Shown: one piece after another, positions 2 to 18,161 of the stretch
Position numbering within the stretch: position 1 is the stretch's first letter
How the letters are laid out: each line of letters starts with the position of its first letter
Source: a virus
IMG/VR virus record: IMGVR_UViG_3300031715_000071
Coordinates: 1-25,414 of that record
Reading direction: 5' to 3' (one strand)
DNA: 25,414 nt
Translations under genes and position numbers: made by a program
The notes under the pieces: model-generated
Seen by the model: the letters and a program-made list of their open reading frames with translations, nothing else
Database searches by the model: none
Told to the model about the DNA's origin: nothing

Positions 2-748
2 CCTGAATGCGTGTGCCCAGTCATCGGCGCATTCCTTCGCGTATGGAATGACGGTCTGCCGAGCGATGCGGAGAGGGACCGACTACTCAAGCCATTCATC
101 GCCAAGGTGGTAGGGACTCGCAACAAGAACTTGGAGCGCAAGCGTGGCCTAATGGCTTCGGATTGGTTGATTCGAGTCCATACTCCCGCTTGGCTTCGCC
201 TCGCTGGTTTGGTTTCTCAGGCAGAGCGACTGGAATCTCTGCCGGAAATTACGGACATGGCACAGTTCCCCTCAATCAAAGGGCCGATTGAAGCTGTCAG
301 GGAAGATGCTCGGGCAGCGTGGGACGCAGCGGGGGACGCAGCGTGGGACGCAGCGAGGGCCGCAGCGTGGGCCGCAGCGTGGGACGCAGCGAGGGCCGCA
401 GCGTGGGCCGCAGCGGGGGACGCAGCGAGGGACGCAGCGGGGGACGCAGCGTGGGCCGCAGCGTGGGCCGCAGCGAGGGACGCAGCGAGGGACGCAGCGA
501 GGGACGCAGCGTGGGACGCAGCGGGGGACGCAGCGTGGGACGCAGCGTGGGCCGCAGCGTGGGACGCAGCGTGGGACGCAGCGAGGGACGCAGCGTGGGA
601 CGCAGCGTGGGACGCAGCGAGGGACGCAGCGTGGGACGCAGCGTGGGACGCAGCGAGGGCCGCAGCTAAAAAGAAACTCTCTCCGACCATTCACAAGCTG
701 CAAGAATCAGCAGTGGAACTCGTGCAAAGGATGATTGACGCACGCTAG
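2..748 (+). CDS. Ala/Trp-rich tandem-repeat phage protein (5' partial)
   Basis: The frame is open to the window edge, so the true start may lie upstream. A GTG at 11 is possible but has no visible ribosome binding site. Counting from that GTG, residues 1-98 are an ordinary globular-looking region (with [20 protein letters not shown]), residues 105-216 are 28 four-residue units of the form [D/A]-A-A-[W/R/G], and the tail is basic with a short predicted helix. The repeats should form a long Ala-rich helix with Trp, Arg or Asp every fourth residue. Phage proteins with similar AAW/AAR tracts next to an SDWLIR-like segment are known to me only as uncharacterised families. Function is unknown. The repeat leaves other frames open on both strands, which creates false ORFs. 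Confidence 0.75.
323..658 (+). repeat. 28-unit 12-bp tandem repeat inside a coding region
   Basis: The unit is G[A/C]C GCA GCG [T/A/G]GG, repeated 28 times without an indel. Every unit is identical except at base 2 and base 10, and both changes are non-synonymous (Asp/Ala; Trp/Arg/Gly). The last nine units follow a three-unit super-period (W, W, R), which suggests recent duplication of 36-bp blocks. A partial unit precedes it and a degenerate one (GCC GCA GCT AAA) closes it. Confidence 0.97.
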
Positions 749-2744: not shown

Positions 2745-3792
2745 GCGCAGGGTGGTCACGAAAACGCGCCATATTCGCCCTCAGGCGGCAAAGGCTGCCA
2801 TCGTAGTGCGGCCTCCGACCGAAAAGCCGTGGCTGATACAGGCTGAGGAGCTTACTATCCTCAAAAACGCCATCTGTAAAGGAGCTACCGATGCAGAACT
2901 CCAATTCTGTCTAGCGGTTGCCCGAAGGCGAAAGTTGGACCCGTTCAAAGGACAAATCTGGTTCGTTCCACGCCGCGACCGTGGAGCGGATGACGGCGAA
3001 GGCGGGACCGGCGCGAAGGTCTGGATTCCCGTCGTAAGCATCGGAGGTCTGTGCCACGTCGGAGCGCGTGACCATAAAGACTACGGCTCATTCTCCGAGC
3101 CTCAATACGGACCGACTATCGAAGTCGAATGGCGGTACAAAGGGAACGGATCAGTGAAGAAGCTGAAAGTACCGGACTGGGCCAGCGTAGACGCATGGAA
3201 AAAGGGAGCGATTCATCCGACTGTCGGGAAGGTCTGGTGGAGCGAAATATACCCGAACATTGACTATGCTCCGATGGTGCGCCAGATGCCACGCCGGATG
3301 CTGGCGAAGTGCGCTCAGGCCCAAGCCATCAGACTTGCTTACCCGGAGACTGGCGGACTGTACATCCAAGAAGAAATGCAAGAGACGGGCGAGCCACAGT
3401 TCACGCCAGCGGGAAGGGTAATGACGCAAGTGAATCCACACGAGCAGAAGTACCTTGAGCGCGAGAAAGAGCAACTCGACATGCTGACGCCCGCGCAACG
3501 GGAAGTGGTAGAGCGGCGCATGAAAGAGGCCGAGGAAAAGAAGAATGCCCCGATTGACATTCAACCGCCGAAGGCCGACGCGCCGCCGTCTCTCTACTAC
3601 CGGTACTACCCCGAGAGTGAAACCTATAGGGTTGGCGGGTTTGCGTCACTGGTACGCGAGAATCAGGAGCTTCTAAAGCCTCTCTGGAATCCGATGGTCA
3701 AGAGCTACGTCGCTACGCCGTCGCAACTCGGGAAGCTAATCTCGCAATTCGAGAGAGCCAAGGTACCATTCCGCGAGGCCAAGGATGCCTAG
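2728..3792 (+). CDS. bet: Bet/RecT-family single-strand annealing recombinase
   Basis: GTG 2728 starts inside the end of the upstream gene, with GAGG a few bases before; 354 aa. Hallmarks of the lambda Bet branch of RecT: a helix then RRRKLDPFKGQIWFVPR (residues about 67-82), VWIPVVSIGG (98-107), a beta-rich core, and MPRRMLAKCAQAQAIRLAYP (187-206). Bet binds single-stranded DNA and anneals complementary strands, usually with a phage exonuclease; no obvious exonuclease gene lies in this window. After about residue 220 there is a charged linker and an extra C-terminal segment (residues about 285-354, beginning LYYRYYPESETYRVGGF). This makes it longer than lambda Bet (261 aa) and may be a partner- or DNA-binding add-on. 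Confidence 0.92.
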   Translation: MKTASKRRVVTKTRHIRPQAAKAAIVVRPPTEKPWLIQAEELTILKNAICKGATDAELQFCLAVARRRKLDPFKGQIWFVPRRDRGADDGEGGTGAKVWIPVVSIGGLCHVGARDHKDYGSFSEPQYGPTIEVEWRYKGNGSVKKLKVPDWASVDAWKKGAIHPTVGKVWWSEIYPNIDYAPMVRQMPRRMLAKCAQAQAIRLAYPETGGLYIQEEMQETGEPQFTPAGRVMTQVNPHEQKYLEREKEQLDMLTPAQREVVERRMKEAEEKKNAPIDIQPPKADAPPSLYYRYYPESETYRVGGFASLVRENQELLKPLWNPMVKSYVATPSQLGKLISQFERAKVPFREAKDA

Positions 3793-4165
3793 CCTTTTGC
3801 AGCTCGAATCCTGGCTCAAGCAGGAGATTGCCAAGGGCAAAGGGTACCTGCACACGAACCATGTAGTTATCGTGGAGGAAGAGTCGGAGAAGCGCAAGAA
3901 GGGCGGTGCGCCGGACGAAGAAGGCAAGCTCCCCACCCGCATCGTTTGGGACTGCGGAGAGAATTGGATTTACCGGGAATGGCACACGGAGAGGGAGCGA
4001 TGGATGCAAGCAGCGCAAAGCAACCCAGCCTTGGCGACGGAAGCCCAGCTACAAGCACTGCGCCTGTTCACCAGCGATGGCATACGGGCTATTCTAAACG
4101 AACTGGGAAACCTTCGAGCGAAGAACTCGACTGCTCCGAAAGCCGTAATTCCGTCCGGGATGTAG
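3785..4165 (+). CDS. Hypothetical phage protein, 126 aa
   Basis: ATG 3785 overlaps the end of bet by 8 bp, so coupling is likely. The protein begins MPSLLQLESWLKQEIAKGKG, has a charged central segment (EEESEKRKKGGAPDEEG) and a Trp-rich stretch (IVWDCGENWIYREWHTERERW). The C-terminal third looks helical. No family recognised. Its place directly after bet makes a recombination- or replication-related role plausible but unproven. It is the last gene before the non-coding locus. Confidence 0.7.
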   Translation: MPSLLQLESWLKQEIAKGKGYLHTNHVVIVEEESEKRKKGGAPDEEGKLPTRIVWDCGENWIYREWHTERERWMQAAQSNPALATEAQLQALRLFTSDGIRAILNELGNLRAKNSTAPKAVIPSGM

Positions 4166-4180
4166 ACCGTCTGGCCGCTC

Positions 4181-4209
4181 GCGCCTTCCTAGAGAGGGTG
4201 GGAAAGCGC
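4181..4209 (+). other. Stem-loop at the start of the gene-free stretch
   Basis: GCGC-C-TTCC (4181-4189) pairs with GGAA-A-GCGC (4201-4209): eight base pairs interrupted by one C/A mismatch, loop 11 nt. A second stem GGTTC/GAACC (4211-4215 with 4227-4231) follows. No U tract is present, so neither is a convincing terminator for the upstream operon. Confidence 0.4.
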
Positions 4210-4289
4210 AGGTTCGTTTTGTAGCAGAACCAGGAGAAAGGCCGGAAGGCGTAGCTTGAAATCAGCTTCGCTTCGACAGGAGATTTTGC

Positions 4290-4318
4290 TTGCACAGGGA
4301 ATCATCTTCGCTTAGAAT
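4290..4318 (+). promoter_or_regulatory. Candidate sigma70-type promoter of the structured RNA locus
   Basis: TTGCAC (4290-4295), 17 nt, then TAGAAT (4313-4318). The -10 box matches the consensus at 5 of 6 bases and the -35 at 3 of 6. Transcription would begin near 4325, ten bases before the first arm of the interlocked inverted repeats. The weak -35 keeps confidence moderate. Confidence 0.45.
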
Positions 4319-4324
4319 CCGAGT

Positions 4325-4735
4325 GCGATATCGTCCTGAGGCTGCTCGGCGTAAGAACGTCCTTTGCCGGATACTCGCGCTGACAGCCTCAGGCATGAAT
4401 CGCAAAGAAGTATCCGGCAAATGGCTAAACACTTTTATTTGCCCAGTGCGGTTAGGACGCTGCAACTCGCTGCCATGCGATGCGAGCAACAACGGTGTGT
4501 GCCTGAAATTCTCTTCGGGAGAGGCGGCACGCGCGACAGTTCTCTCGCGTCCCATACGTCAAGAAAGCATGGCTGCGACTCGGAGAGATCCGTGCGCGTT
4601 GAGAGACGCCCTGTACACTAGGACCCAGCGACCGCCAATCGCTGACACCAGTTTCTCAGAAGATTGCCCAAAGCGAAACGACCGACCGACGGGGGTTAAT
4701 TTCGCATCGGAGACCGACGGGTTAGGGTCTCCTTT
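4325..4735 (+). ncRNA. Candidate large structured non-coding RNA with H-type pseudoknot
   Basis: This is the only stretch over 300 bp without a convincing gene (4166-4774). Two perfect inverted repeats interlock: CCTGAGGCTG 4335-4344 with CAGCCTCAGG 4384-4393, and TTTGCCGGATACT 4363-4375 with AGTATCCGGCAAA 4409-4421, in the order A-B-A'-B'. Intervening lengths are 18, 8 and 15 nt, enough to allow a pseudoknot. Further stems follow: 4444-4462, 4466-4486, 4501-4525, 4531-4550 (GCGCGA/TCGCGT), 4581-4592 (CGGA with a GAGA tetraloop), 4626-4644 (CAGCGA/TCGCTG), 4673-4705 (GCGAAA/TTTCGC) and 4709-4732. A possible promoter precedes it. Phages are known to carry large ornate RNAs of several hundred nt (GOLLD, ROOL); membership is not claimed. 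The ORFs crossing it lack ribosome binding sites and protein-like composition. Confidence 0.55.
4709..4735 (+). terminator. Terminator-like stem closing the structured RNA locus
   Basis: GGAGACC (4709-4715) pairs perfectly with GGTCTCC (4726-4732), loop 10 nt, followed by TTT. The U tract is short, so this is a weak intrinsic terminator at best. It could instead be a 3' structural element. The direct repeat GACCGACGGG occurs inside it and about 26 nt upstream. Confidence 0.4.
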
Positions 4736-4774
4736 GCTCACTCCCTCTCTCTGAAGGTTTTATAGGAGGATGGC

Positions 4775-4897
4775 ATGAGTGATTACAGCCAAAAGTGCAT
4801 AGCGGTTACTAGGACCAAGGAAGGTCTAATCAAGCACATTTGCGGCCTAAAGCTCTGGCATTCAGGGAAACATCGCTGCCGAGATTGTGGCGATTAA
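4775..4897 (+). CDS. Cys/His-rich microprotein, 40 aa
   Basis: ATG 4775 follows a strong TATAGGAGGATGGC ribosome binding site. The 40-aa product ends in a segment with ICGLKLWHSGKHRCRDCGD. A CG...W..GKHRC..CG pattern is what small phage zinc-binding proteins look like: one Cys early, then H-S-G-K-H and C-R-D-C. One zinc site is likely. The gene opens the block after the structured RNA locus, and the next gene starts 17 bp further on. Function unknown. Confidence 0.7.
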   Translation: MSDYSQKCIAVTRTKEGLIKHICGLKLWHSGKHRCRDCGD

Positions 4898-4914: not shown

Positions 4915-5265
4915 ATGAACAGAAAAATAACGCTCACGAGTCTCAAGAGGAAATACCCACATCCTGTCCGTGGTGTAGGTTCTGACGATGGACAGTATTG
5001 CGTTGGAGGAGCCCTCTGCCGGGAGGTCGGAAACGAGATAGACTTTCCTAGATGGGAACAACTGCGGGATGCAGTCGAGAAGGCCACGCTCATAAATCAC
5101 TACGTTCTCAGTAATGAGGACAACGAACTGTTTCGTGGTCAGTGTATCAAGGTCATAGAAATGAATGACATTGGGAACTTTGACGGAGCATGGAGAGAAC
5201 TCGGTTACTTACTTCGATGGAATCCGAAAGACAGGTTCTCCCAAACCAAAGCGAAGGTAACGTAA
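4915..5265 (+). CDS. Hypothetical phage protein, 116 aa
   Basis: ATG 4915 is chosen over upstream in-frame codons because GTGAGGACGAG lies just before it. The protein (MNRKITLTSLKRKYPHPVRG...) contains GSDDGQYCVGGALCREVGN, then a helical region and a C-terminal GAWRELGYLLRW. It has three Cys but no paired CxxC motif, and no membrane segment. I do not recognise the family. It is followed by a 93-bp gap that carries a recurring intergenic motif. Confidence 0.7.
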   Translation: MNRKITLTSLKRKYPHPVRGVGSDDGQYCVGGALCREVGNEIDFPRWEQLRDAVEKATLINHYVLSNEDNELFRGQCIKVIEMNDIGNFDGAWRELGYLLRWNPKDRFSQTKAKVT

Positions 5266-11822: not shown

Positions 11823-12119
11823 GTGAGCCGCTGGTCCCATCGCTCCAAGGACGCCTACATGGGCAAGCCTGCCAAGCTGATTGCCCAGAGGCATCAGGCC
11901 GTGCTGAACGAGCAAGCCAGAAACAACGCGCCTAAATGCTCCCTGCACGTAGGCACGCGCATGATTGCAATCGTGCAGAAGGTGCACATCAACGTAGCTG
12001 GTGACACAACAACCGATGATGTAGGTAGAGAATTTGTAGTACGATTCCGCTGTCCGGTGGTTCAGAACGGGAGGCATTGCGAGCAGGTCAGTGGAATCTC
12101 AGCAGAGGAGGAGTTATGA
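11823..12119 (+). CDS. Hypothetical phage protein, 98 aa
   Basis: GTG 11823 follows CAAAGGAGAATCTC. The product starts MSRWSHRSKDAYMGKPAKLI and is basic in its first third, then beta-rich with three spread Cys (KCSLHVG, FRCPVV, HCEQV) and a His near the middle. A single zinc site is possible. No family recognised. The stop overlaps the next ATG (ATGA). Confidence 0.65.
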   Translation: MSRWSHRSKDAYMGKPAKLIAQRHQAVLNEQARNNAPKCSLHVGTRMIAIVQKVHINVAGDTTTDDVGREFVVRFRCPVVQNGRHCEQVSGISAEEEL

Positions 12120-12583
12120 AGTACCTGACGATCCTAATTGCAATCTTATCTTTATCATTTCTGGCGCAAGCCGATACGATCAACGAGAACGTATTCATGG
12201 ACAGTGGACAGGCTGATTTCACGCTCCTAGACGCAACAGGATTTAACCCCGATGGAGGGCTGTATCAAGTCTATTACAACGTTCCGGGAACCTGGCAAGG
12301 CGAAGAGGTTTCCTTCGATGCGTACTATGCGGTAGTCCCTGGAACACCGAATCCCGATGACGAGCTGTACGTGTGGAGTCCTGAGGTCTCAATGGCTGGG
12401 TACAATCCGGTGACATGGCTCAACGGAGGATTCGAGTTCATTCAAGGGGATTATCCTCTCGGGAACGGAAATCTGTTTATCACCGTGGACCCGCCAAGCG
12501 TGCCTGAGCCTGCCAGCCTGTCCCTACTGGCAATCGGCCTAGTATTTTGCATACAAAGGAGAAAAAGATGCGTAAAGCTGTGA
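12116..12583 (+). CDS. PEP-CTERM sorted secreted protein
   Basis: ATG 12116 follows CAGAGGAGGAGTT; 155 aa. Residues 1-19 are a signal peptide (MKYLTILIAILSLSFLAQA). The body is acidic, aromatic and beta-rich (LYQVYYNVPGTW; VSFDAYYAVVPGTP). Residues 129-151 are a complete PEP-CTERM signal: VPEP, a hydrophobic span ASLSLLAIGLVFCI, and the basic end QRRKR. In bacteria this signal is handled by exosortase (EpsH family) for export to the envelope or matrix. Finding it in a phage early/middle region suggests a host-acquired gene that changes the surface of the infected cell. It overlaps the next gene by 16 bp. Confidence 0.85.
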   Translation: MKYLTILIAILSLSFLAQADTINENVFMDSGQADFTLLDATGFNPDGGLYQVYYNVPGTWQGEEVSFDAYYAVVPGTPNPDDELYVWSPEVSMAGYNPVTWLNGGFEFIQGDYPLGNGNLFITVDPPSVPEPASLSLLAIGLVFCIQRRKRCVKL

Positions 12584-13904: not shown

Positions 13905-14455
13905 CCGTAGATTCGGACCGTTACTTTGCGTGCATCGAGGCGGTTGAGAACATCTTCCACGCTGGCCCCATCGGTTTCGAGGCGTTGTTCGATAAAATCC
14001 TGGTCGTAGAGGACGAATTCCGTTCCGGCTACGAATGCGACACCTGTTCCGCCACAGGCTCTATCGTCTGTGCGGAATGCAAAGGTACGGGCAAGAGCTT
14101 CGTGAACGAGAAAATCACCTGCAAAGCCTGCCACGGAGTAACTACGCTCTCTTGTCCTGACTGCAAGGGAAAGGGCGTATTCCTCGATATTCCCGATGTA
14201 GCGAAGAATCGTCCCACGACCGGCGAAGTGAAAAGCATCGGCAGCGAGACGGTCACTCTCAAGCGTGGAGACCGGGTCATCTACCCTAGCTTCTGCGGCG
14301 AAGTAATGGACCTGAACGGCGTAGACCCGAAAACAGGCAAAGAGGTAAAGGTTGTGATTCGGATGCTGCGCGAGAAAGAAGTCATAGGGCGCGTAACCGG
14401 CAAGCCGATGGACCTACGCCGCATCAACAAGCAAGAGTTTCAGACGACAGGCTGA
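13901..14455 (+). CDS. GroES-like co-chaperonin with DnaJ-type zinc module in the mobile loop
   Basis: GTG 13901 overlaps the previous stop (GTGA); 184 aa. The GroES-like fold is split: FDKILVVEDE (30-39) resembles the first GroES strand (HDRVIVKRKE); GVFLDIPDVAKNRPTTGEV (92-110) resembles the strand after the mobile loop; LKRGDRVIYPSFCGEV (120-135) and EVKVVIRMLREKEVIGRV (148-165) match the GDxVIF and IM-E-x-x-I-L-A ends. Between the first two parts, where GroES has its GroEL-binding loop, lie four CxxC motifs: C46/C49, C57/C60 (CAECKGTG), C74/C77 and C85/C88 (CPDCKGKG), like the DnaJ Cys-rich domain that binds two zinc ions. It lies between the terminase genes. A role in capsid or terminase folding is inferred. 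Confidence 0.75.
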   Translation: MTVDSDRYFACIEAVENIFHAGPIGFEALFDKILVVEDEFRSGYECDTCSATGSIVCAECKGTGKSFVNEKITCKACHGVTTLSCPDCKGKGVFLDIPDVAKNRPTTGEVKSIGSETVTLKRGDRVIYPSFCGEVMDLNGVDPKTGKEVKVVIRMLREKEVIGRVTGKPMDLRRINKQEFQTTG

Positions 14456-16127: not shown

Positions 16128-18161
16128 ATGCCTGACTCCACTCAGCCCGAGTCAAACAAGCCTTCCGGTCGCCTATCGGTATCTTTCCCTGAAAACAAGG
16201 CATTCGAGCTGCACACCGCTTCGTTCGGAGAATCCAAGGACAAAGAGATTGAACGCTGGCTGCACGAGTGGATACGCACGAACAAGGAAGCTCACGATGT
16301 GCTGTTTATGCGGCATGTCCCTCGTTGGCGAGAGATTGCGCTAGGCAAGCCTCGTGACCAAACCAAATCTTTCCCTTGGCCTAACGCAAGTAATCTGGTG
16401 ATTCAGGTCGTCGGGCAGAGAATTGACGATATTTCAGCACGAGTCATGGGCCTGGTGTGGCAAACCTCTCCGGTAGCCATCTACCGCTATTTTTACAAAT
16501 CAGGCAATCCCGAGCACGACCAGCGCAAGAAACAAATCCTAGAGCAGTTCATAGACAACGTAGCGTACGAACCTGCGGAACTCGATCTTTACCGCAAGGA
16601 GAACATGTGGTTCGCGGACTCAGCCAAACTGGGAACGGCATTCGTCAAGGTCTACCCGGACAAACGCACGAACGTCAATATCGTGGGCTACGGATCGGAC
16701 TCAAAGAAGCAGATTGAATTCGAGGAGACGGAAGCCTACAACGGCCCAGCGGTGGACAACGTGAAGTTCGAGCATGTCTTGGCTGACCCCAAAGCAGCGA
16801 CGTGGGAAAAATCGCGGGTGAAGTGCCATATCCGTACGTTGAGCAGGCACGAGCTGGACGAGCGAGCCTTCACCGGATTCTACGACAAGGACAAAGTAGC
16901 GGAGATTCGCGGGAAACCCGACAGGCATGGGCCGGACCAGAACACGCAAAGGACGCAATCGAAGAAAGGCATCAACCAGGGCCAAGACTCGATTATGGCC
17001 GAGTGGGACGTATACGAGTGTTGGTTCTGGTACTACATCAAGATGCGGAAGAAAGAGGGCGGAACGCAGATGGTGAAGGTCGAACTGACTTTCAGCTATC
17101 ACTTCGCCTCTCGCGTTGTACTCAGGCAAGTCTTCAACTTCATGCCGGAGAATCAGGTTCCTCTTATTCCCACCAAGCTGTCTATCGCGGATGAAGGCGT
17201 GTACGGCAGAGGCTACGCCGACATGCTGGAAAACTCTCAGGATGAAGTTTCGACGCAACACAACCAGCGGATTGATGCACGGACAATAGGAATCACGGGC
17301 ATCTTACGGACGAGCAACCGAAACCTCGACAAGAATTTCGGTATTTACCCGTCCTGCATCATTCCGGGGGAAAAGGATGAGAGCGAATGGCTACAGGCAA
17401 GAGAGCCGGGCGATGGCGGAATTGCGGACGAGGAGCTTACGCTTAGACTCGCGGACGAAAGGGCGGGCGTGGGTCCAGCAGTCGCCGGAATGGGGGCAGG
17501 TCAGACTAATAAGAAAGGCCAATTCGGATCAATGGGAACTCTGGCCGTTATGCAGGATTCCAACTCACGGGTTAATCACCGTGTATCAGACTTTAGGCAC
17601 TCGCACGTCAAGCTCATCAGCCTTTGCACGATGATGTACGCGAAGTTCGGGACGGGCGAGAAAGGCTCGATGTTTGGCCTCGATGACAAGATTCTTGAAG
17701 AAGCCTTGAGCGATTTCCTCTCAAAGAAAGTTCGCATCCCTATTCGCGCAGCAACGGCTTCGGCCAACAAGGAAGTCGAGAAGCAGAACGACATGCTGCT
17801 CCGAAACTCTTTGTCTCAACACAACGTCGAGCAAATCAAATTGCTTCAGGCCATCTCACAGATGAACGATCCTGCCGTAAAGAAATACATGCAGGACATC
17901 GTTCTCTCGCAAGACCTGATGATGAAGCAAACGCTCAGAGACTTCGGCTACGATAACCCGGATGAGTTTGTGCCGAAGATGCACTTCCAAGAGGAGCAGC
18001 AGAATGGCCCGAAAGCGCAAGGAAACGGTCAACCCGCCGCAGCAGCACTCGGCGTGGCCTCACCTCCACAGCAATCAGCACCTAGCGGCGGCAATGGTTC
18101 AGGACCGGGCGTTCCAGCTGTTGCTGGAGGATTTGCGGAGCCATCGGGCGGTCAACGCTGA
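16128..18161 (+). CDS. Portal protein
   Basis: ATG 16128; 677 aa. A long helical protein with the portal-like entry RDQTKSFPWPNASNLVIQVV, RIDDISARVMGLVW, stem and wing regions, and a helix-rich segment NKEVEKQNDMLLRNSLSQHN near residues 540-580. The last 50 residues are a disordered Pro/Gly/Ser/Gln tail. Portals form a dodecamer at one capsid vertex, hold the terminase and let DNA in and out. Size is similar to the large portals of podoviruses. The tail region overlaps a second reading frame. The call rests on size, order after terL and the Pro-Trp-Pro-x-x-x-N segment. Confidence 0.88.
   Translation: MPDSTQPESNKPSGRLSVSFPENKAFELHTASFGESKDKEIERWLHEWIRTNKEAHDVLFMRHVPRWREIALGKPRDQTKSFPWPNASNLVIQVVGQRIDDISARVMGLVWQTSPVAIYRYFYKSGNPEHDQRKKQILEQFIDNVAYEPAELDLYRKENMWFADSAKLGTAFVKVYPDKRTNVNIVGYGSDSKKQIEFEETEAYNGPAVDNVKFEHVLADPKAATWEKSRVKCHIRTLSRHELDERAFTGFYDKDKVAEIRGKPDRHGPDQNTQRTQSKKGINQGQDSIMAEWDVYECWFWYYIKMRKKEGGTQMVKVELTFSYHFASRVVLRQVFNFMPENQVPLIPTKLSIADEGVYGRGYADMLENSQDEVSTQHNQRIDARTIGITGILRTSNRNLDKNFGIYPSCIIPGEKDESEWLQAREPGDGGIADEELTLRLADERAGVGPAVAGMGAGQTNKKGQFGSMGTLAVMQDSNSRVNHRVSDFRHSHVKLISLCTMMYAKFGTGEKGSMFGLDDKILEEALSDFLSKKVRIPIRAATASANKEVEKQNDMLLRNSLSQHNVEQIKLLQAISQMNDPAVKKYMQDIVLSQDLMMKQTLRDFGYDNPDEFVPKMHFQEEQQNGPKAQGNGQPAAAALGVASPPQQSAPSGGNGSGPGVPAVAGGFAEPSGGQR

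What the first reader, a model, noticed from the sequence alone, without database searches (positions are those of the whole stretch)
4166..4774. Gene-free 600-bp locus with interlocked 10-bp and 13-bp perfect inverted repeats: candidate large structured RNA
A (4335-4344)/A' (4384-4393) and B (4363-4375)/B' (4409-4421) are perfect and interleave, with 8-18 nt connectors long enough for an H-type pseudoknot. Two such long interleaved matches within 90 nt are very unlikely by chance. A promoter-like pair (4290/4313) would start the RNA 10 nt before A. At least seven further stems and a closing 7-bp stem plus TTT follow. Phage large ornate RNAs such as GOLLD and ROOL set a precedent, but no membership is shown.
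Basis: partly seen in the sequence, partly recalled or inferred. Interest (0 to 1): 0.85.

Follow-up and report, generated by a model that had tools for sequence, protein, structure and literature searches.

The report
Orphan pseudoknot-prone phage RNA domain
Between two genes of a soil phage lies a strongly folded, untranslated stretch of about 270 bases whose main hairpin loop is perfectly complementary to the bases just after the hairpin; it is real and not chance, but no related sequence was found, so its function is unproven.

Summary
In 4360 dinucleotide shuffles of the whole window, only 2 gave an equal or better interleaved pair. The stretch is non-coding. Two corrections follow. (1) The 10-bp 'A' arm is the core of a 27-bp hairpin (4324-4352/4377-4404). 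'B' lies in its 24-nt loop and B' starts 4 nt after its base, so the pseudoknot cannot form in cis with the full stem; a nested fold is favoured by roughly 5 kcal/mol after a pseudoknot penalty. (2) Only about 267 nt (4318-4584; z = -5.9) fold better than chance; the flanks (z = -0.5 and +0.4) do not, so a 600-nt ornate RNA is unsupported. Rfam finds nothing (no GOLLD or ROOL). No homologue was found in viral, plasmid, phage or genome collections, and the closest relative phage has ordinary genes there, so covariation cannot be tested. I favour a cis-acting, two-state intercistronic RNA. Looking for relatives uncovered something firmer: an RNA family absent from Rfam, lying upstream of the terminase gene in related phages, with the same A-B-A'-B' order and clear covariation. 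Covariance-model tests do not place the window's element in it.

The parts
4318..4584 (+). Core structured RNA domain, closed by 4318-4324/4578-4584
   Evidence: MFE -122.6 kcal/mol against -91.3 mean of shuffles, z -5.87, 0/200; closing stem mean pair probability 0.82
4324..4404 (+). Hairpin I: 27 bp (4324-4329/4399-4404, 4331-4334/4395-4398, A 4335-4344/4384-4393, D 4346-4352/4377-4383), 24-nt loop
   Evidence: z -7.33, 0/500 shuffles
4363..4375 (+). B: 13 nt on the 3' side of the loop of hairpin I
   Evidence: perfect complement of 4409-4421
4409..4421 (+). B': starts 4 nt after the base of hairpin I; can pair with B, or alternatively (4416-4424) with 4435-4443
4416..4443 (+). Competing 9-bp hairpin (GGCAAATGG/TTATTTGCC) that uses part of B'
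   Evidence: mean pair probability 0.91 in the nested ensemble
4468..4577 (+). Domain III: stacked helices 4472-4478/4567-4573, 4479-4486/4544-4551, 4495-4503/4526-4534, 4509-4514/4518-4523
   Evidence: pair probabilities 0.87-1.0; z -2.84 for 4464-4584
4166..4317 (+).
   Evidence: z -0.46
4585..4774 (+).
   Evidence: z +0.43; sequence
3785..4165 (+). Upstream gene (126 aa, unknown function), stop codon at 4163-4165
   Evidence: 54% identical homologue in L004:662-1018
4775..4897 (+). Downstream 40-aa reading frame with Cys/His (zinc-ribbon-like) pattern behind AGGAGG
   Evidence: read; codon score -0.108, so not certain
4915..5265 (+). Downstream 116-aa gene, no family
   Evidence: codon score +0.084; no relatives found

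Best explanation
An untranslated, intercistronic RNA domain of about 267 nt in the phage's plus-strand recombination gene cluster. Shown: it is non-coding and folds far better than chance into a 27-bp hairpin with a 24-nt loop plus a second stacked-helix domain, and 13 nt of that loop are perfectly complementary to the strand just after the hairpin. Inferred: transcribed with its neighbours, it acts in cis as a two-state element. State 1 is the full 27-bp hairpin plus the competing 4416-4443 hairpin. State 2 is a loop-to-tail pseudoknot (B/B') with the lower 10 bp opened. The choice of state would affect stability, processing or expression of the downstream genes. The function of the switch is not shown.
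For: Pairing and rarity. Folding z. Non-coding. All surrounding main genes are on the + strand and a ribosome-binding site follows, so the stretch is very likely inside an mRNA. Two states of similar energy: nested -122.6 kcal/mol against -120.8 and -122.7 for steric-compatible pseudoknots before any pseudoknot penalty. B' has two mutually exclusive partners.
Against: No homologue, so no covariation and no evidence of selection on either state. With a usual pseudoknot penalty the nested form wins by roughly 5 kcal/mol, so state 2 may never be populated. The codon score of the small downstream frame is not clearly coding. No ligand, protein or transcript data.
Confidence: 0.4

Rival explanations
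1. A free-standing non-coding RNA that oligomerises: with the 27-bp stem intact, loop B cannot reach B' in the same molecule but could pair with B' of another copy, giving head-to-tail or reciprocal multimers, as intermolecular loop pairings do in GOLLD, ROOL and OLE.
For: The 27-bp hairpin with B paired is the lowest local energy (-64.1 against -59.4 nested) but is sterically impossible in cis because only 4 nt separate stem and B'. Ornate phage RNAs use loop-to-junction intermolecular pairs (PMC12286853).
Against: No convincing own promoter (9/12 match, 0.6 expected by chance) or terminator; no tRNA neighbourhood; flanks unstructured; no homologues.
Confidence: 0.15
2. A shortened, relocated member of the terminase-upstream pseudoknot RNA family that this study found in related phages: same order A, D, B, D', A', B'.
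For: Same arm order and B in the loop of an inner stem D with a 1-nt 3' gap; weak sequence resemblance at UCCUU-B (P about 0.05); one CM-found member, L150, also has a short L3 (14 nt) and no clear C helix.
Against: Not found by covariance models R2 or R3, the latter with filters off, although R3 finds other distant members. No helix C, loops 18/8/15 against about 28-49/23-35/14-63, different genome location.
Confidence: 0.1
3. A DNA-level element (replication origin, recombination or packaging site) whose inverted repeats act as binding sites or single-strand hairpins.
For: Lies just downstream of a RecT-like annealing protein and contains direct repeats 4260-4276/4300-4316 and 4684-4693/4712-4721.
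Against: No GC-skew switch or A+T-rich block; no iterons; interleaved arms suit single-strand folding rather than dimeric protein sites.
Confidence: 0.15
4. Non-functional spacer: decayed DNA in a variable slot whose repeats arose by chance or by local template switching.
For: The slot is variable: the closest relative L004 has ordinary genes there; no homologue anywhere searched.
Against: Whole-window shuffles give such pairing in 2/4360 and the hairpin z is -7.3. Template switching could make one inverted repeat, but two interleaved ones plus domain III are less easy.
Confidence: 0.2

Closest known systems
H-type RNA pseudoknots in phage and plasmid leader RNAs (general kind, from knowledge)
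   Same: Hairpin loop complementary to the strand just 3' of the hairpin; A-B-A'-B' order
   Different: Stem 1 extends to 27 bp, which blocks the cis pseudoknot unless it partly opens; no known family matched
GOLLD, ROOL and OLE ornate RNAs
   Same: Untranslated, highly structured; GOLLD and ROOL are phage-borne; loop-to-junction pairings
   Different: No Rfam match to them at E < 10; about 267 nt of excess structure, not 600-800; no tRNA neighbours; no homologues
Terminase-upstream pseudoknot RNA found here in L084, L121, L129, L076, L078, L051, L143, L081, L124, L159, L153, L162, L150, L168, L131 and L006
   Same: Order A, D, B, D', A', B'; intergenic; B in the loop of D
   Different: The window element lacks helix C and motif AAAUCC-F, has shorter loops, lies 10 kb from terminase, and is not hit by the models
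cabRNA of staphylococcal phages (PMC10686824)
   Same: Structured phage RNA; relevant to the terminase-upstream family rather than to the window
   Different: cabRNA maps inside terS/terL coding sequence; no sequence relation tested

Membership tests
GOLLD / ROOL (Rfam) | Match to the family covariance model | tested here: not met
   No match at gathering threshold and no match to either with E up to 10 in 4100-4850
GOLLD / ROOL (Rfam) | Often near tRNA islands (PMC12286853) | tested here: not met
   ARAGORN finds no tRNA in the 25.4-kb record
GOLLD / ROOL (Rfam) | 600-800 nt of elaborate conserved structure | tested here: not met
   Only about 4318-4584 folds better than shuffles
H-type pseudoknot | Two interleaved helices with sterically adequate connectors | tested here: inconclusive
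   Arms perfect; connectors fit only if the lower part of hairpin I opens
H-type pseudoknot | Pairing kept by compensatory change in homologues | not testable with these tools
   No homologue found
Terminase-upstream pseudoknot RNA (this study) | Order A, B, A', B' with D stem around B | tested here: met
Terminase-upstream pseudoknot RNA (this study) | Helix C between L2 and L3, loops about 28-49/23-35/14-63 | tested here: not met
   Window loops 18/8/15, no C
Terminase-upstream pseudoknot RNA (this study) | Match to covariance models R2 or R3 | tested here: not met
   No match at 4318-4450 (filters off); R3 finds held-out L131 and L149
Terminase-upstream pseudoknot RNA (this study) | Location in the intergenic gap upstream of TerL | tested here: not met
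   Window TerL starts at 14455 with abutting genes; element at 4318-4584

The most novel reading that the evidence does not exclude
A lineage-specific phage RNA whose intact 27-bp hairpin presents a 13-nt loop segment that can pair only in trans with the tail of another copy, making an RNA-only multimer; or a founder of an unreported RNA class related to the terminase-upstream pseudoknot RNAs.
Probability: 0.12. Interest if true: 0.75.

Novelty: new variant of a known kind. Interest (0 to 1): 0.48.

Why it matters
The window element by itself is one more orphan structured phage RNA, though a statistically strong one with a clear two-state prediction that can be tested on one transcript. Checking it exposed a covariation-supported pseudoknot RNA family, absent from Rfam 15, just upstream of the terminase gene in many soil phages. 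That raises a directly testable question: whether RNA structure controls late gene expression or DNA packaging in phages outside the phi29 group.

Tried and rejected
Rfam at gathering and at E < 10: nothing of note. DNA similarity in phages and plasmids: nothing relevant. Back-translation scan of the open 154-aa frame, used as a DNA-homology probe, in viral and genome contigs: nothing; this probe mainly reaches close relatives. Neighbour-gene routes: RecT relatives L002 and L003 and the nearest terminase relative L004 lack the element; the downstream 116-aa gene has no relatives. A single-sequence covariance model R1 over 50 related viral records: nothing. A 19-nt match (4263-4281) in three records lies in coding sequence and is coincidence. 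Group I intron or ribozyme readings: no Rfam support. Coding reading of 4290-4754: rejected by codon score and absence of families. Membership in the terminase-upstream family: not supported.

Full report
WHAT WAS CLAIMED. Two perfect interleaved inverted repeats in a gene-free 600-bp stretch (4166-4774), read as a large structured RNA with an H-type pseudoknot.

THE OBSERVATION. The window is a 25,414-base virus record with RecT-like, RusA-like, topoisomerase, terminase, portal and major head genes on the plus strand. A 4335-4344/4384-4393 and B 4363-4375/4409-4421 are perfect. In 4360 dinucleotide shuffles of the entire window, 2 contained an interleaved pair with as many base pairs. In 1.7 Mb of related phage loci, no other short-loop interleaved pair reaches 23 bp. 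The longest open frame inside, 154 aa, has the codon statistics of spurious frames (-0.128 per codon against 0.16-0.33 for genes) and no Pfam match.

ANATOMY. Folding shows that A is the core of a hairpin of 27 bp (4324-4352 with 4377-4404), leaving a 24-nt loop that holds B, with B' starting 4 nt after the stem. This hairpin has z = -7.3 (0/500 shuffles). The domain 4318-4584, closed by 4318-4324/4578-4584 and containing a second stacked domain (4468-4577), has z = -5.9 (0/200). The flanks 4166-4317 and 4585-4774 have z = -0.5 and +0.4 (pair probabilities).

CAN THE PSEUDOKNOT FORM? With all 27 bp formed, 4 nt would have to span the whole stem, which is impossible in cis. If the lower 10 bp, or the lower 6 bp, open, the tail has 15 or 10 nt and the geometry becomes possible. 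Those states come to -120.8 and -122.7 kcal/mol against -122.6 for the nested fold, before a pseudoknot penalty. Replacing the bimolecular initiation term by a usual penalty (from knowledge, about 9.6 kcal/mol) leaves the nested fold ahead by about 5 kcal/mol (the penalty arithmetic is mine). B' also forms a competing 9-bp hairpin with 4435-4443. So the element is best drawn as two-state, with the nested state favoured by this model. The same arms could pair between molecules without opening the stem.

RELATIVES. No homologue was found: blastn against phages and plasmids, back-translated pattern scans of viral and genome collections, neighbour-gene routes, blastn and a covariance model over 50 related viral records. 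The nearest relative, L004 (terminase 78% identical), keeps the upstream 126-aa gene at 54% identity but has ordinary genes where the RNA should be. The slot is variable and the RNA is an orphan in this data, so covariation cannot be tested.

WHERE THE SEARCH LED. Scanning the terminase relatives for interleaved repeats uncovered an RNA in the intergenic gap upstream of terminase, in many cases directly after the upstream stop codon: L076, L078, L051, L143, L081, L084, L121, L129, L124, L159, L006, L153 and L162. Order: A, F, D, B, D', F', E, C, A', C', E', B' (not every member shows E or F clearly). A descriptor requiring A, B and C gives 5 hits of 26 bp or more, and none of 29 or more, in 119 Mb of shuffled sequence, against about 18 hits of 26 or more (some of them duplicate loci) in 1.7 Mb of real sequence, nearly all of them on the terminase strand. 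In the alignable trio L084/L121/L129, six pairs spread over all five tested helices change on both sides, no pair varies on one side only, and 99% of cells are paired. L076 and L078 exchange most of the C helix (GCTTCACC/GGTGAAGC against GTCAGACC/GGTCTGAC). Helices F and D in seven members: six of nine pairs with two-sided change. Two covariance models built on subsets then found further members, L150, L168, L131 and L149, in which helices not in the model are mostly present (C is not clear in L150 and B is weak in L149). Rfam has nothing for the loci tested. phi29 pRNA (from knowledge) and the cabRNA at terS/terL (PMC10686824) are the nearest known terminase-linked RNAs by location; no relation was tested. 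The bulk of this family's evidence comes from picking well-paired places first, so the shuffled control and the held-out helices are what carry it.

IS THE WINDOW ELEMENT A MEMBER? It shares the A-D-B-D'-A'-B' order and a weak UCCUU-B resemblance (P about 0.05). It lacks C, has shorter loops, lies 10 kb from terminase, and is not matched by R2 or by R3 with filters off. R2 and R3 also miss some members that the descriptor found, so the negative is not absolute, but I do not file the element there.

VERDICT. A real, strongly folded, untranslated orphan RNA domain; the pseudoknot is possible but not established; the 600-nt ornate RNA is not supported. The most likely role is a cis-acting two-state intercistronic element (0.4), with trans multimerisation, a DNA element and inert spacer as live rivals.

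Noticed in passing
L084:6048-6195, L121:1332-1483, L129:2068-2215, L076:9181-9345, L078:8944-9109, L051:2453-2631, L143:3662-3811, L081:2317-2459, L124:3549-3696, L159:3618-3764, L153:2289-2441, L162:2350-2481, L150:3771-3884, L168:276-401, L131:3434-3549, L006:2791-2948: A pseudoknotted RNA family not in Rfam, upstream of the terminase gene in phages related to the window's phage; helices A, F, D, B, E, C with compensatory changes, and covariance-model hits confirmed by helices left out of the model. This deserves its own study.
   Followed up: yes
L149:3668-3820: Further likely member of the same family found by model R3 (E 3e-6): A (GACTAACACAA) and C (AAAAACAG) helices present, B weak.
   Followed up: partly
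L074:7688-7852 and L082:2902-3077: Other long interleaved inverted repeats (13+10 and 11+10 bp) upstream of terminase that do not share the family's sequence features.
   Followed up: no
window 12077-12583: Small gene ending in a PEP-CTERM-like motif (VPEPASLSLLAIGLVFCIQRRKR), unusual for a phage and a hint to the host group.
   Followed up: no
window 2-748: Low-complexity gene of AAWDAARD-type repeats; several other frames stay open over the same DNA.
   Followed up: no
window 4260-4276 and 4300-4316; 4684-4693 and 4712-4721: Direct repeats within the gene-free stretch (17 nt at 88%, spaced 40; GACCGACGGG twice).
   Followed up: partly
window 16885-17151: Low folding z-score (-4.2, only 15 shuffles) inside the portal gene.
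   Followed up: no
L004:1107-1844: In the closest relative phage the slot of the RNA is filled by two ordinary genes (98 and 133 aa): a variable cargo position.
   Followed up: partly
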